Source of the DNA: an uncultured Chlorobiota bacterium
Lineage (GTDB): Bacteria > Bacteroidota > Kapaibacteriia > OLB7
Length of the DNA: 5,475 nt
Assembly (NCBI GenBank): GCA_946481475.1
Contig: CAMLOB010000320.1
Coordinates: 1 to 5,475, forward strand
Direction of reading: 5' to 3'
Shown here: in pieces, positions 477 through 4,455 of the stretch
Position numbering within the stretch: position 1 is the first letter of the stretch
How the letters are laid out: each line of letters begins with the position of its first letter
Made by a program: the position numbers and the translations under genes
Notes under the pieces: model-generated
Told to the model about the DNA's origin: nothing
The model's input: only the letters and a program-made list of their open reading frames with translations
Databases searched by the model: none

Positions 477-752
477 TCACGTCCCTCCTTCGATTGCGCG
501 GACGGCACTCCGCACATAGTCGATGCTGAGACCGACCTCTTTGGCGATGGTGCGGATCGGGACGTTCTGCGCGTGGAGCTCTGCGATGTAGGCCTGCACC
601 AGCGGCTCGATCCGGTTCGGATGCGGGACGTAGAGCCGGGTGCCGGGGAGTTCGACCATGAGTGTGCGGACGACATCGATGCCGCAGACGTCGGCGATCA
701 GTTGCATGTCGGCCGAGAGGTGTTGGTAGGTGATACGCTTTGTCAGGGACAT
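477..752 (-). CDS. Mor-family transcriptional activator (phage Mu Mor/C type)
   Basis: This 91-residue protein has the layout of the Mor transcription activator family. An N-terminal helical dimerisation part holds MQLIADVCGIDVVRTLMVEL (16-35). A short strand with the family-typical GTRLYVP (37-43) follows, and a C-terminal helix-turn-helix covers about residues 64-87 (IRTIAKEVGLSIDYVRSAVR). In phage Mu, Mor activates the middle promoter as a dimer; related proteins occur in many prophages and integrative elements. Length is close to the family norm. No clear Shine-Dalgarno precedes the ATG. The gene lies downstream of the replication-like genes, where a switch to later gene expression would fit. 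Its target promoter is not identifiable here. The assignment rests on my recognition of the family pattern, not on a search. Confidence 0.75.
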   Translation of the reverse strand: MSLTKRITYQHLSADMQLIADVCGIDVVRTLMVELPGTRLYVPHPNRIEPLVQAYIAELHAQNVPIRTIAKEVGLSIDYVRSAVRAIEGGT

Positions 753-759
753 GGTGGAT

Positions 760-880
760 TTTCGATTTGCGATTTATGAGTTTCGATTGTTGGTTGAGTT
801 GGGGGCAGTGAGCTATGAGCTATCAGCAGTCAGCTATGAGTCTCCCTTTGCGCCTTTGCTCTTTGCGTTCTTTGCGTGAG
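760..880. repeat. Patchwork of three short intergenic repeat types
   Basis: Three runs of simple repeats lie side by side. About 760-787 has CGATTT-type units (cgatttgcgattt, then tttcgattg). 811-840 has AGCTATGAG and GCTATCAG units (agctatgag at 811-819 and again at 832-840). 846-876 has CTTTGCG-type heptamers at 846, 861 and 870, with a variant between them, a period of about 8-9 bp. Similar sequences are common between genes in several bacterial phyla. The third run is inside the coding frame of the upstream gene and encodes its lysine-rich tail. Confidence 0.7.
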
Positions 881-1427
881 TCTCGGCAGTAGAGCAATCA
901 GCCTCCCTCCGCCAGTATGCCCGGCGTTCCTTGCGAAGTTGGGTGATGGTCTCGCCGGCTCGGTCGAGATCTTCCTTCAGCTTCCAGCGTTCGCGTTCGC
1001 AGGCGAGGAGGCGGACGGTTGTTGCGTTCATTCGCTCGGCTGCTTCCTCCGGTGAACCTTCCCGCTCTTCCTCCTCCCTCCTCTTGCGGTAGCCCGCTTC
1101 GAAGGCTCGTTGCTTGATTGCGGCCAGTTGCCGGGGCGTGATCACCGGTTCACCGAACGCCTGGAACCAGAACCGGCGGGCAAGGGGACGGCCATACGTC
1201 TCCATCAACGCCACCGTCTCGGCGGCGGCGGTGATCTGGTCCAGCGTGTAGGGCGTTTCGTACAGCCAGTCGGCCAGCGTCAGGCGCTGGTCCGATGTGG
1301 CGACGCTGAGCGTTGCCTGCTCCAGTTCGGCAATCAGCCGGATGATCGCCACCGCCCGCTTCTCCTCTTGCTCCGGCGACAGACCGGCGTGATCGATAGC
1401 TGGGGCCGTGATGCCGGCGGCGTCAAT
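834..1427 (-). CDS. Unrecognised protein in the position of a helicase loader
   Basis: The open frame reaches back to an ATG at 1553, but residues encoded there (MRPRSRADSNTSTSTRTR) look like a shadow of the upstream gene. I prefer an ATT start at 1427, four bases after AAGGAG, with the upstream TGA overlapping it by one base (ATTGA). This gives 197 residues. Residues 46-93 are helical, with DWLYETPYTLDQITAA followed by GRPLARRFWFQAF. Residues 113-175 are highly charged and likely coiled coil (KRREEEEREGSPEEAAERM ... LRKERRAYWRRE). The tail THAKNAKSKGAKGDS is encoded by an intergenic-type repeat. The middle part faintly recalls lambda P-type replication proteins (Trp ... tldqi ... pla..Fw), and the gene directly follows an initiator-like gene, as P follows O. 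That role is inference; no diagnostic motif is seen. Confidence 0.65.
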   Translation of the reverse strand: MDAAGITAPAIDHAGLSPEQEEKRAVAIIRLIAELEQATLSVATSDQRLTLADWLYETPYTLDQITAAAETVALMETYGRPLARRFWFQAFGEPVITPRQLAAIKQRAFEAGYRKRREEEEREGSPEEAAERMNATTVRLLACERERWKLKEDLDRAGETITQLRKERRAYWRREADCSTAETHAKNAKSKGAKGDS

Positions 1428-2406
1428 GAAGCTCCTTCTTTTCGGCTCGTTGTCTGCGTCGTTCCCGCATGAGGGCGAGGAGTTTGAGGGTCTCCGGATC
1501 CTCGTCCGGGTTGAGGTGGACGTGTTGCTGTCGGCTCGTGATCGTGGTCTCATGGTCGCGTCGAGATGATGATGGTGATGCGTTCGATTGTCGGTACCGC
1601 CAGGCGGCCATCAGACTGGCTCCCCAGTGACGGATCGCGTTGCCGTTGCGGTCGACCCAGCCGACCGACGTGTAGCTCTCCCAGATGCTCCGGGCATCCT
1701 CCTCCGGCACACCGGATCGAGCGGCATGGTCCAGAAACTCCGCAAGCGTCGGCCAGTGATCGCCCGGATCGAAGCGCGCCGCCTCTGTCTCTGTTCTCTG
1801 GTCTTGTTCAATGGTATAGTTCCTGGATCTGGTTCTGTGGGACATCGGTGTCACGGGTCGGGGGACACCAGTGTCACCCCCCTCAGGACATCGGTGTCCT
1901 CCCCCCGGGTCATCCGTGTCACCGGTGACAGGGGCGTCATCGGGCAGAAGGACACCAGTGTCCCCGGTTGGAGGACATGTGTGTCCCTCCCCCGGGACAT
2001 CAGTGGCACCGGTAGCAGGGACACTCACGTCACCCGGGACATCGGTGTCACCGGTTGCAGGGACATTGATGACCTCACCGGACAGAGATAACCCCTCCCG
2101 AGCGGTCGGTTCCCCCGAGTTTTCCACAAGACAGATCGTCGGGTTCAGCAGGCGGTACGTGGTGGTTCTGCCGGTCGAAGCCTTCCGCTCGATCAGCCCC
2201 ACCCCCTCCAATCCCTTCAGCAGACGGGCAACGGTCCGGACCGAGAGTCCGATATCGGCGGCAAGACGGGAGCGGGAGGGCCAGCAGATCTGCTCGGCGT
2301 TGGCGTAGGAAGCCAGGATCATGTAGAGGCAGCGGGCCTGGGGCGAGAGGGCGGCGTTGCGGATCAGCGCAACCGGAAGACAAGCGAAGGGTTCGGTCCG
2401 CTTCAT
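1423..2406 (-). CDS. Replication-initiator-like protein with N-terminal winged HTH
   Basis: The 327-residue protein has three parts. Residues 1-90 form a winged helix of the HTH_36 kind used in plasmid and phage replication proteins: LSPQARCLYMILASYAN, then CWPSRSRLAADIGLSVRTVARLL, then a wing ending TTTYRLL. Residues about 111-190 are a Gly/Pro/Asp/Thr-rich linker with recurring GDTDVPG, GDTGV, GHRCPE and TPMSH, encoded by the repeat array at 1841-2073. Residues 215-272 contain a conserved-looking module (IWESYTSVGWVDRNGNAI, then HWGASLMAAW). It matches the GW..g..i.dW.aa...W pattern seen at the C terminus of phage replication proteins. The tail is basic (RERRRQRAEKK). The start overlaps the upstream stop as ATGA, with a strong GGAGGGAG 5 nt before it, so the pair is probably translationally coupled. 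Initiation at its own internal repeats, as with lambda O, is a hypothesis. Confidence 0.75.
   Translation of the reverse strand: MKRTEPFACLPVALIRNAALSPQARCLYMILASYANAEQICWPSRSRLAADIGLSVRTVARLLKGLEGVGLIERKASTGRTTTYRLLNPTICLVENSGEPTAREGLSLSGEVINVPATGDTDVPGDVSVPATGATDVPGEGHTCPPTGDTGVLLPDDAPVTGDTDDPGGGHRCPEGGDTGVPRPVTPMSHRTRSRNYTIEQDQRTETEAARFDPGDHWPTLAEFLDHAARSGVPEEDARSIWESYTSVGWVDRNGNAIRHWGASLMAAWRYRQSNASPSSSRRDHETTITSRQQHVHLNPDEDPETLKLLALMRERRRQRAEKKELH
1432..1437 (-). promoter_or_regulatory. Shine-Dalgarno that supports a non-standard ATT start
   Basis: On the minus strand AAGGAG is followed by CTTC and then ATTGAC. The ATT (1427-1425) is in frame with the downstream gene. The last base of ATT is the first base of the TGA that ends the upstream gene. 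No ATG, GTG or TTG in this frame lies near the Shine-Dalgarno. The 4-nt spacing is short but workable. Confidence 0.5.
1841..2073. repeat. Array of eleven 12-bp inverted-repeat units (iteron-like)
   Basis: Plus-strand units start at 1841, 1864, 1887, 1909, 1927, 1951, 1974, 1996, 2020, 2038 and 2062. Consensus is GACAYCRGTGTC; the copies at 1864 and 1951 (GACACCAGTGTC) have perfect 5-bp arms, and the one at 1927 is the most diverged. Spacings are 23, 23, 22, 18, 24, 23, 22, 24, 18 and 24 bp, about two helical turns. Some spacers are also related (ctccccccgg and cctcccccgg; accggtagcagg and accggttgcagg), which suggests block duplications. Eight units are read as D-T-D/G-V-like, two as G-H-R/T-C-P and one as T-P-M-S, so all codon phases occur. 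Binding by the encoded HTH protein is inferred. Confidence 0.8.
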
Positions 2407-2720
2407 GGCCGCTCCCTCCTCCGCTGCGTCCCTTGCAACGCGGCGGTGACATCCTCGACACGGTAGAGCAGGCGACGGCCGGCACGGCAGGGGATCAGCG
2501 CTCCCTGCTTCTCGAGTTTCCGGAGCGTGGTGTAGGAGACATGCAACAACTCGGCGGTCTCGGCTCTGGTCAGGAAATCGGTCCCGCCGTCGGGCTTCTC
2601 CGGATCGTTCTTCGGCAGACGTTCATCGAGGGCATCGGCGATCCCGCGACGGATCAGACCGGAGAGTTCTTCAAGACTGATCGGGAGGATGATTCCTCCC
2701 GGATGGACTGGATGATTCAT
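2403..2720 (-). CDS. Excisionase/MerR-type HTH DNA-binding protein
   Basis: This 105-residue protein carries a C-terminal helix-turn-helix of the HTH_17/excisionase class at about 49-95: FLTRAETAELLHVSYTTLRK, then a wing with CRAGRRLLYRVEDVTAAL. The N-terminal 45 residues include a short helical segment (SLEELSGLIRRGIADALDERL) that may mediate self-association. Proteins of this type act as excision directionality factors, replication accessory proteins or small regulators on Bacteroidota mobile elements, and the sequence does not decide between these. It begins 27 bp after the upstream small gene and ends in a 4-bp ATGA overlap with the initiator-like gene, so all three are probably one transcription unit. 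No clear Shine-Dalgarno precedes its ATG. Confidence 0.8.
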   Translation of the reverse strand: MNHPVHPGGIILPISLEELSGLIRRGIADALDERLPKNDPEKPDGGTDFLTRAETAELLHVSYTTLRKLEKQGALIPCRAGRRLLYRVEDVTAALQGTQRRRERP

Positions 2721-3052: not shown

Positions 3053-3559
3053 ATGAAGCAAACCAGAATGGCTCGCATCATTGATGATTACGAGTCTTTA
3101 CAGAAGCAAATTGGTCATCGTTTGCAGATGATGCGGATCGAGCTGGGATTGAACCAGACGGAGCTGGCTGAAGCCTGCGGCGTCTCGAACGGACGCATCA
3201 GCGAGAACGAGGCGGGGAACGCACTGATCAGTACCGACCTGATCCTGGCTCTCTGGCAGGTCTTCCACGTGAGTCCCTTCTACCTCCTGTTCGACATCGG
3301 ACCGAGGAGGTTTGCCCGGGATCCGATGACCGATGGAGCCGGCGTTGCGACGTTGAACAGACTGCTGGAGGCGATCAGCGCGACAAGCGAATGGTTGCTC
3401 TCGAACGGCGGCGAAGTCCTGCCGCAACCGGCACCGGAAGACATGAACCGCTTCAGCAACGCCCGCTTCGGCAAGACGGCCAAAGCCGAGACCTACACCG
3501 CCGAAGAGGTGGCCGAACTGATGAACCAGTTGCGCAAGAAGGAGCGGAAGGGCCCATGA
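3053..3559 (+). CDS. XRE-family helix-turn-helix transcriptional regulator
   Basis: The 168-residue protein has a typical Cro/CI helix-turn-helix at about residues 20-80: IGHRLQMMRIELGLNQTELA, turn ACGVS, then recognition helix NGRISENEAG (46-55), and DLILALWQVFHVSPFYLLF. The HTH is followed by a region of about 90 residues with no recognised domain and a C-terminal predicted helix (TYTAEEVAELMNQLRKKERK, 147-166). It lacks a fused S24 peptidase or other sensor domain. It is transcribed away from the replication-type operon across a shared control region, which fits a repressor of that operon and of itself. The ATG has no Shine-Dalgarno but is the first in-frame start giving the complete HTH. 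Confidence 0.85.
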   Translation: MKQTRMARIIDDYESLQKQIGHRLQMMRIELGLNQTELAEACGVSNGRISENEAGNALISTDLILALWQVFHVSPFYLLFDIGPRRFARDPMTDGAGVATLNRLLEAISATSEWLLSNGGEVLPQPAPEDMNRFSNARFGKTAKAETYTAEEVAELMNQLRKKERKGP

Positions 3560-3677: not shown

Positions 3678-4022
3678 ATGAGATCATACAACGCTGAGCG
3701 GAACGGCCGCTCACAGCAGACGACAGGAACGAACGACAACAGAAGACAGATCACGATTGAGGACGGCTCGCTTGAAGGGGTAGGGATTCATCCGGGAGAT
3801 GAAGTCACGATCGAGCTGCAACCCATCCACCGTGAAGACCTGCGATACCACCGAGGCGAGCTTCTCTGTTTCGCGGATGGTGCCGGCGGCATAGTGGTAG
3901 GCCGGTGTGCGTATCCGTACATTGAACTACCGTACCGGGAAATCACCTTGAGAATCGGGATGAGTGATCGGCGGGTTGTGGGGGTGGTGAAGAATACGAA
4001 CCGGTCCGAGCAAAATGAGTAA
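3678..4022 (+). CDS. Small protein resembling a degenerate S24/LexA-like domain
   Basis: The 114-residue protein contains DGSLEGVGIHPGDEVTIEL (29-47). This resembles the active-site segment of LexA/CI S24 peptidases (GDSM..aGI.dGD.v.v), and Ser31 is in the position of the nucleophile. The end (RRVVGVVKNTNR, 98-109) resembles their last strand, eviG.V. The expected catalytic lysine is not evident: around GGIVVGRCAYPYIEL (70-84) an arginine (76) is the only basic residue. It may therefore be an inactive or non-proteolytic fold. It lies 118 bp after the XRE gene on the same strand, so the two could be the separated halves of a phage-type repressor. No strong ribosome binding site is seen. It could also be an unrelated beta-barrel protein. 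Confidence 0.6.
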   Translation: MRSYNAERNGRSQQTTGTNDNRRQITIEDGSLEGVGIHPGDEVTIELQPIHREDLRYHRGELLCFADGAGGIVVGRCAYPYIELPYREITLRIGMSDRRVVGVVKNTNRSEQNE

Positions 4023-4083: not shown

Positions 4084-4090
4084 ATTCCAG

Positions 4091-4164
4091 TACACCCGAG
4101 AGGATTCGAACCCCTAACCTTCTGATCCGTAGTCAGATGCTCTATCCAGTTGAGCTACGGGTGC
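4091..4164 (-). tRNA. tRNA-Arg, anticodon ACG
   Basis: The minus strand folds into a complete 74-nt cloverleaf. The acceptor stem is GCACCCG/CGGGTGT with one G-T pair, and the D arm is GCTC/GAGC. The anticodon stem TCTGA/TCAGA has loop CTACGGA (anticodon ACG), and the T arm AGGGG/CCTCT has loop TTCGAAT. The discriminator base is A. The CCA end is not encoded and must be added after transcription. In bacteria A34 of this tRNA is normally converted to inosine, so it reads CGU, CGC and CGA. It lies 30 bp after the rpsT stop on the same strand and probably shares its transcript. Its 3' end faces the phage-like region, a common integration target. Confidence 0.97.
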
Positions 4165-4194: not shown

Positions 4195-4455
4195 TTAGGC
4201 GTTGTCGAAGTTTGCGACCAGCCGGGCGAACTGACTCTTCCGGTTTGCCGCAAAGTTCTTGTGGATAACTCCCTTGGTGGCCAGACGGTCAAGGATCTGT
4301 TGCGCCTCGCGACTCTTCGCGACCGCTTCATCCTTGTTCGAGGCCTGATGCACCGCCTTGATCGCCCGGCGCATCTTGATTTTCTGGAACCGGTTGTAGG
4401 CGCGGCGCTTTGCCGACTGCTTTACCCGCTTCTCTGCTGACTTATGTTGAGGCAT
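4195..4455 (-). CDS. rpsT: 30S ribosomal protein bS20
   Basis: The 86-residue product has the bS20 signature throughout. It begins MPQHKSAEKRVKQSAKRRAYNR, typical of the lysine/arginine-rich first helix. A central three-helix bundle follows, with AIKAVHQASNKDEAVAKSRE and ILDRLATKGVIHKNFAANRK, in which the G-V-I-H-K-N-x-A-A-x-R-K motif is diagnostic. bS20 binds 16S rRNA early in 30S assembly. The length is normal. The frame is open further upstream to 4728, but the family N terminus and a promoter at 4486-4516 fix the start at 4455. Shine-Dalgarno complementarity is weak (GACGAG). A 5-bp hairpin (CCGAC/GTCGG) in the 30-bp gap to the tRNA lacks a T-run and probably does not terminate transcription. 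Confidence 0.97.
   Translation of the reverse strand: MPQHKSAEKRVKQSAKRRAYNRFQKIKMRRAIKAVHQASNKDEAVAKSREAQQILDRLATKGVIHKNFAANRKSQFARLVANFDNA

What the first reader, a model, noticed from the sequence alone, without database searches (positions are those of the whole stretch)
1841..2073. Possible intragenic replication origin: 11 palindromic units inside an initiator-like gene
Seen directly: a 12-bp imperfect palindrome (GACAYCRGTGTC) occurs 11 times at 18-24 bp spacing, close to two helical turns. It lies wholly within the part of the gene that encodes the linker between an N-terminal winged HTH and a C-terminal module. A locally AT-richer stretch (about 1791-1840, 27 of 50 bases A/T) follows on the C-terminal side. 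Established: in phage lambda the origin lies inside gene O, with palindromic iterons in the linker-coding region, an AT-rich stretch after them, and binding by the O N-terminal domain. Inference: the same design arose here with a different HTH family and many more units.
Basis: partly seen in the sequence, partly recalled or inferred. Interest (0 to 1): 0.75.

Follow-up and report, generated by a model that had tools for sequence, protein, structure and literature searches.

The report
Replication origin hidden inside initiator gene
A gene on a probable integrated virus-like element carries, inside its own coding sequence, eleven copies of a palindrome followed by an easily melted stretch, which looks like the DNA start site that the gene's own protein would open for replication, a known phage design that here turns out to be widespread.

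Summary
The array is real. Eleven units (six exact GACANNNNTGTC, five with one mismatch) lie at 18-24 bp spacing in 1841-2073, inside the gene at 1423-2406 (-); the exact palindrome occurs nowhere else in the window. Units fall in all three reading frames, and 0 of 1000 synonymous recodings reach the array's score, so DNA is what is kept. The gene encodes a winged HTH (HTH_36), a linker predicted as disordered that holds the array, and a helical C-terminus. A protein-blind scan of viral contigs for two adjacent units gave 23 loci; in 21 they lie 3' of an HTH in one ORF (19 with PF13730). An AT-rich, A-biased stretch follows the array (top 6% of the gene in 18 of 22 genes). Arginine 61 of the recognition helix is present in 21 of 21; two close homologues with threonine there appear to encode a different palindrome. 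Best explanation: a lambda-type intragenic origin, iterons plus unwinding element, bound by the protein's own N-terminus. It works like lambda O/ori but is not a Phage_rep_O member. Binding and origin activity are untested. New member of a known kind; generality and helix-iteron covariation are the interesting part.

The parts
1423..2406 (-). Initiator-like gene, 327 aa: HTH_36 N-terminus, linker, C-terminal helical part
   Evidence: ORF; PF13730 E 1.1e-14; PHROG replication initiation / O-like families
2191..2349 (-). Winged HTH (residues 20-72), proposed iteron-binding domain; Arg61 codon at 2224-2226
   Evidence: Pfam; AF2 block-mean pLDDT 71-84 for residues 21-90; R61 conservation
1841..2073 (-). 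Array of 11 palindromic units GACA-N4-TGTC: 2062-2073, 2038-2049, 2020-2031, 1996-2007, 1974-1985, 1951-1962, 1927-1938, 1909-1920, 1887-1898, 1864-1875, 1841-1852
1781..1840 (-). A-rich, AT-richer stretch on the C-terminal side of the array, proposed DNA unwinding element
   Evidence: 1791-1840 in the top 2% of the gene's 50-nt stretches, 22 A to 5 T on the gene strand; same position in relatives with the same unit
1582..1746 (-). C-terminal helical part (residues about 221-275), proposed partner of a helicase loader or helicase
   Evidence: AF2 helices, low confidence (block means 43-65); a last helix at residues 304-326 is better predicted (65-78)
2403..2720 (-). HTH_17 / excisionase-like small DNA-binding protein just upstream, overlapping the initiator start by 4 bp
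834..1553 (-). ORF in the position of lambda P; no Pfam match; as listed it overlaps the end of the initiator gene
   Evidence: role inferred from position only
3053..3559 (+). Divergent phage-type repressor (HTH_3)
   Evidence: phrog_8 5.9e-15

Best explanation
The array is the replication origin of a prophage or integrative element, lying inside the gene of its own initiator, as in phage lambda. The winged HTH of the protein (residues about 20-90) binds the palindromes, probably as dimers, at up to 11 sites about two helical turns apart; the resulting nucleoprotein complex melts the A-rich stretch at 1781-1840, and the C-terminal part brings in a helicase loader or helicase. Shown here: the anatomy, DNA-level conservation of the array, the recurring link between this iteron, this HTH type and the AT-rich stretch, and a trend of covariation with the recognition helix. 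Inferred: binding, dimerisation, melting, loader recruitment, origin activity.
For: (1) Units lie in all three frames and 0/1000 synonymous recodings reach the score. (2) A protein-blind scan for two adjacent units in viral contigs gave 23 loci: 21 of 23 lie 3' of an HTH in one ORF (by eye), 19 of 23 with PF13730 at E<=0.01 (20 of 24 with the window); phrog_270 'replication initiation protein' in 19 of 24 including the window. Exceptions: L011 (unrelated protein) and L024 (N-terminus outside the stretch). (3) Units span more than one frame in 19 of 22 genes; the 60 nt 3' of the array are in the AT-richest 6% of the gene in 18 of 22 (10 of 13 HTH clusters) and have more A than T on the gene strand in 22 of 22 (no control for codon bias was made). 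(4) Lambda's four annotated iterons lie in frames 0,2,2,1 and the 60 nt after them rank 0.00 for AT in the gene, 30 A to 12 T. (5) Arg at position 61 in 21 of 21 pattern-found HTH ORFs, 12 clusters at 50% HTH identity besides the window, and in the protein-found L077, which has the same unit. P0002 and P0003 (Thr61) have 5 and 4 linker sites that could encode GCAACCGRTTGC within 1 mismatch (shuffled linkers: at most 2) and 0 that could encode the window unit. (6) Other HTH_36 initiators carry other palindromes: Thermus phage L002 and Parageobacillus phage L003. (7) Control: among HTH_36 hits in Actinomycetota genomes 4 of 29 tested tails score at <=5/100, none of those that by eye look like LexA or GntR regulators.
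Against: No binding or origin data. The AT-richer stretch is modest in absolute terms (54%; 12% of window 50-mers match it). Five of 11 units carry a half-site mismatch. In genes with other units the AT-rich stretch is less regular: with motifs set by hand, 3 of 24 loci gave fewer than two units (L061, L075, L080) and of the other 21 only 9 (lambda among them) have the following 60 nt in the top 6%; several of those 21 gave one to three doubtful units. Within the GACA set, L008, L014, L023 and L030 lack a marked AT-rich stretch. P0004 has 1 site for the relatives' unit, no more than shuffles give. Arg61 does not predict the iteron: of 8 protein-found loci with Arg there only L077 has a GACA-N4-TGTC array; L088 has one site with a 3-bp spacer and L003, L072, L074, L082, L084, L085 have none. 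Only 10 of 25 protein-found phage and plasmid genes show an array at <=5/100, one of them, L078, by a motif that is probably a GC artefact. The downstream ORF is not recognisable as a loader.
Confidence: 0.85

Rival explanations
1. The array is a cluster of binding sites for the same protein but serves autoregulation, incompatibility or partition rather than initiation.
For: HTH_36-type domains also occur in regulators; multiple sites could titrate the protein. No replication data exist.
Against: No exact site lies at the promoter side or anywhere else in the window; an AT-rich, A-biased stretch follows the array at the same place in 10 of 13 clusters; the PHROG families matched are mostly replication initiators.
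Confidence: 0.1
2. A degenerate repeated protein motif (DTGVP) in a flexible linker, kept for the protein, with the palindrome as by-product.
For: Most window units are in frame 0 and read DTGVP-like; L014, L023 and L030 use one frame only; L038 shows a purely in-frame 33-bp tandem.
Against: Units in frames 1 and 2 read GHRCP, GHTCP and VTPMS; 0/1000 synonymous recodings reach the score; 19 of 22 genes use more than one frame.
Confidence: 0.02
3. A family of small mobile palindromic elements (REP-like) that invaded the gene in all three frames.
For: Insertion in several frames and variable copy number would fit.
Against: In the viral scan the unit pair lies 3' of an HTH in one ORF in 21 of 23 loci; no exact unit lies elsewhere in the window; other initiators carry other palindromes at the same place.
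Confidence: 0.02

Closest known systems
Phage lambda O protein and ori-lambda
   Same: Iterons in the linker-coding part of the initiator gene, in all three frames, AT-rich A-biased stretch on the C-terminal side (passages of PMC7466680)
   Different: O is Phage_rep_O (PF04492), the window protein HTH_36; 4 iterons in lambda, 6 in Stx phages (PMC7466680 passages), 11 here; different palindrome and a GC-rich setting
pPR9 Rep (plasmid initiator with pfam13730 N-terminus)
   Same: PF13730 N-terminal domain; differs from pSK41 in the ~500 bp of N-terminal domain and origin; supports autonomous replication (passages of PMC5703833)
   Different: Its C-terminus is >97% identical to that of pSK41 Rep (same passages); its DNA was not fetched or examined here
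RepA_N plasmid initiators (pSK41 Rep)
   Same: Winged HTH N-terminus binds four Rep boxes centrally inside the rep gene; the ori-encoded protein part is dispensable (PMC5703833 passages)
   Different: No RepA_N match in the window protein up to E 0.1
Pseudomonas phage MD8 O-like gp56
   Same: HTH_36, palindromic array found here at 0/100; its authors already note repeats within the gene (PMC8508860 passages)
   Different: Different unit (CCGCA-N5-TGCACC type)
Bacillus phage SPP1 gene 38 / oriL
   Same: Direct repeats and AT-rich unwinding element, positioned within the gene of the origin-binding protein (PMC6316719 passages)
   Different: Not compared by sequence here

Membership tests
HTH_36 (PF13730) initiators | HTH_36 domain over the curated cut-off | tested here: met
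   54.4 bits against 25
HTH_36 (PF13730) initiators | Match to phage replication initiation families | tested here: met
   phrog_270, 391, 1032 and others
Phage_rep_O (lambda O family, PF04492) | PF04492 domain | tested here: not met
   Not among matches up to E 0.1; lambda O itself gives PF04492 only, up to E 0.01
RepA_N | RepA_N domain | tested here: not met
   No such match up to E 0.1
RepC (repABC, PF03428) | RP-C domain over cut-off | tested here: not met
   18.8 bits against 24.4
Lambda-type intragenic origin (by architecture) | Iteron array inside the linker-coding part of the initiator gene | tested here: met
Lambda-type intragenic origin (by architecture) | AT-rich stretch next to the array on the C-terminal side | tested here: met
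   modest in absolute AT content
Lambda-type intragenic origin (by architecture) | Helicase loader gene next door | tested here: inconclusive
   ORF 834-1553 has no Pfam match and only a weak match to a PHROG of unknown function
Lambda-type intragenic origin (by architecture) | Initiator binds the iterons and opens the origin | not testable with these tools
   needs binding and replication assays

The most novel reading that the evidence does not exclude
HTH_36 initiators form a large, scattered class in which each gene carries both halves of its own recognition pair, the recognition helix and its binding sites a few hundred bases away, and the two change together. Arg61 goes with the GACA half-site, and other residues go with GGTGCA or GGGGCA types. 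The pair moves as one cassette in front of differing C-termini, so that the origin can be read off the protein gene and a protein-DNA recognition code could be learned from sequence alone.
Probability: 0.45. Interest if true: 0.68.

Novelty: new member of a known kind. Interest (0 to 1): 0.48.

Why it matters
It places a lambda-type origin inside a GC-rich initiator gene of another HTH family, with the largest array met in these calls, and shows that such genes can be found from a DNA pattern alone. If the helix-iteron covariation holds, many uncharacterised phage and plasmid origins could be predicted from sequence, with natural paired data on how a winged HTH chooses its DNA.

Tried and rejected
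Searches that led nowhere: the window protein or its small alignment A1 in viral contigs (no relative); genome contigs gave one locus, L001 (Cellulomonas), whose match covers residues 95-139 only and has no exact unit nearby, taken as a low-complexity artefact. No host genome is held, so dispersed copies and the far end of the element could not be looked for. The repeat finder and TRF show only parts of the array, probably because spacing varies. The pattern for the relatives' inferred unit (CAACCGRTTG pair) gave 11 loci of which only L061 and L066, with near-identical proteins, lie in an HTH ORF, so it does not confirm that unit in DNA; it stays inferred from protein. A scan with a relative of L022 returned only itself. 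The A3 family scan returned 8 loci, five of them on contigs already known. The A4 family (80 of 434 relatives) is nearly uniform. The Fisher table (14/0 against 4/13, p 2e-5) was made by hand: GACA clusters plus L077; the others, whose single-linkage group of the window was split by hand into window, P0002-P0004 and the Tyr group, plus L061. L088 was dropped as ambiguous (p 3e-5 with it; 6e-6 after dropping L072, the L074 group and P0005). Several rows counted as 'other unit' have arrays that are not significant at 5/100, and rows were sampled in different ways, so it is a lead and no proof. Actinomycetota loci were first read on the wrong strand for minus hits and redone; their sorting into regulators is by eye, without a family scan. 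Foldseek gave no match at E<=0.001; among the weak winged-helix matches are 4pta (titled Structure of MDR initiator) and 5kbj (Structure of Rep-DNA complex). That the C-terminus resembles DnaT-type tails is recalled and untested.

Full report
WHAT IS THERE. The minus-strand gene 2406-1423 encodes 327 residues. Its N-terminus is HTH_36 (PF13730, E 1.1e-14) and matches PHROG families named replication initiation or O-like. AlphaFold2 on a four-sequence alignment (mean pLDDT 48.9) gives a winged HTH (block means 71-84 for residues 21-90), values under 50 at 91-218, low-confidence helices at 221-275 and a better predicted last helix at 304-326. The part of the gene that encodes the disordered stretch holds eleven units GACA-N4-TGTC, six exact and five with one mismatch, at 18-24 bp. 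The exact palindrome is found only there in the window.

IS IT DNA OR PROTEIN. The units fall in three reading frames: DTDVP/DTGVP in frame 0, GHRCP and GHTCP in frame 1, VTPMS in frame 2. Dinucleotide shuffles do not reach the score (0 of 200); nor do synonymous recodings of the linker (0 of 1000) or codon-order shuffles (maximum 9 against 23 in 300). Lambda's own four annotated iterons lie in frames 0, 2, 2 and 1, so this is what an intragenic origin can look like when read as protein.

BLIND RETRIEVAL. A scan of the viral contig collection for two adjacent units, without reference to any protein, returned 23 loci. In 21 of 23 the pair lies 3' of an HTH in one ORF (by eye; L025 is a short HTH ORF, with the units near its end). 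L011 is an unrelated protein and L024 lacks its N-terminus in the stretch held. Pfam confirms PF13730 at E<=0.01 in 19 of the 23 (20 of 24 with the window). The 21 HTH proteins share 17-29% identity with the window in the alignment; their HTH regions form 12 clusters at 50% identity besides the window.

UNWINDING ELEMENT. In these 21 genes and the window the 60 nt directly 3' of the array are among the AT-richest 6% of the gene in 18 of 22, in 10 of 13 clusters, and carry more A than T on the gene strand in 22 of 22. L008, L014, L023 and L030 are the exceptions for AT rank. Lambda has the same layout (rank 0.00, 30 A to 12 T). For genes with other units the picture is mixed: of 24 loci scanned with hand-set motifs 3 gave fewer than two units, and 9 of the other 21, lambda included, reach the top 6%. 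In the window the stretch is 54% AT, modest in absolute terms.

OTHER INITIATORS, OTHER PALINDROMES. Twenty-five phage and plasmid genes found by protein similarity were examined: 22 of the 61 phage records, picked to spread over the groups listed (two of them fetched through; not each group is covered, for example H16), and three plasmids. Ten of 25 show a palindromic array at <=5 of 100 shuffles (in L078 by a doubtful motif). Thermus phage Lalka27b has eight GGTGCA-N5-TGCACC-like units at 21-23 bp, Parageobacillus phage four GGTTCT-N3-AGAACC-like, Bifidobacterium phage PMBT6 six GACA-N4-TGTC, five of them exact. Actinomycetota HTH_36 hits serve as control: 4 of 29 tested tails pass <=5/100 (L032, L035, L037, L038), and those that by eye look like LexA or GntR regulators do not.

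HELIX AND ITERON. At window position 61, in the recognition helix, Arg is present in 21 of 21 pattern-found HTH ORFs and in the window. The closest homologues, P0002-P0004 (38-43% identity by BLASTP), have Thr, Thr, Leu there. Their linkers could encode GCAACCGRTTGC within one mismatch at 5, 4 and 1 places, in three frames for P0002 and two for P0003, and the window unit at none; shuffled linkers give at most 2, so P0004 says nothing. In family A2, 17 of 80 loci with an RA[VI]R[NG]ALRWL helix carry GGCA-N5-TGCC units, whereas 63 with an RTVQ helix carry CCGCA-N5-TGCACC-type units where visible. A hand-made cluster table gives p 2e-5 for Arg61 with GACA, with the caveats told under Tried and rejected. 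Against a simple code: of eight protein-found loci with Arg at this place only L077 has the array.

CONTEXT. A divergent phage-type repressor (3053-3559 +), a weakly ribbon-helix-helix-like ORF (2748-2951 -), an excisionase-like HTH_17 protein overlapping the initiator start by four bases, the initiator, an unknown ORF in the place of lambda P, and a late-activator-like ORF at 477-752 follow in lambda-like order beside tRNA-Arg and rpsT. This suggests a prophage or integrative element at a tRNA; no integrase was recognised among the ORFs scanned and no second copy of the tRNA 3' end lies in the window.

MECHANISM. Shown: anatomy, DNA-level constraint, recurrence, covariation as a trend. Inferred: the winged HTH binds the units in dimers, the complex melts the A-rich stretch, the C-terminus recruits the helicase through a loader. 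Confidence 0.85 for origin function of this kind.

KNOWN OR NEW. It works like ori-lambda; by Pfam it is not of the lambda O family. A review describes a plasmid initiator, pPR9 Rep, with a pfam13730 N-terminus and autonomous replication, and Rep boxes inside rep for pSK41 (passages of PMC5703833). Repeats within the O-like gene of phage MD8 were noted by its authors (passages of PMC8508860), and SPP1 oriL lies in gene 38 (passages of PMC6316719). In the repABC plasmid p42d the origin is inside repC but without iterons (passages of PMC3155836). Mycobacteriophage RepA authors suspected an origin upstream of or within the gene and found no repeats in the regions they looked at (passages of PMC7157519). 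The listings showed no title or abstract start that states a helix-iteron covariation in this class; most of those papers were not opened, and the library lacks most subscription papers. Hence: new member of a known kind, of more than usual interest because of its generality.

Noticed in passing
window 4090-4164 and 4195-4455 (-): tRNA-Arg (ACG) and ribosomal protein S20 gene next to the element; the tRNA 3' end faces the element, as for integration at a tRNA, but no second att copy lies in the window (longest repeat of the tRNA 3' end 11 bases).
   Followed up: partly
window 3678-4022 (+): 114-aa ORF after the repressor with a pattern recalled from S24/UmuD-like repressor C-termini; no Pfam match.
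   Followed up: no
window 477-752 (-): 91-aa ORF similar to a late transcriptional activator family (phrog_836, 2e-7), in the place of lambda Q.
   Followed up: no
L004, L005, L006: Three plasmids of Candidatus Chlorohelix each carry an HTH_36-like gene, in L004 and L006 near partition or ATPase genes, with a few GGAA-N6-TTCC palindromes in the linker (5, 0 and 12 of 100 shuffles): probably their plasmid initiators.
   Followed up: partly
L038: HTH ORF in an actinomycete genome ends in four in-frame 33-bp tandem copies holding GAACTGAGTTC, unlike the frame-shifting arrays.
   Followed up: no
L074, L084, L085: Gut phage contigs with HTH_36-like ORFs of only about 100-120 residues and no linker; where their origin sites lie is unclear.
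   Followed up: no
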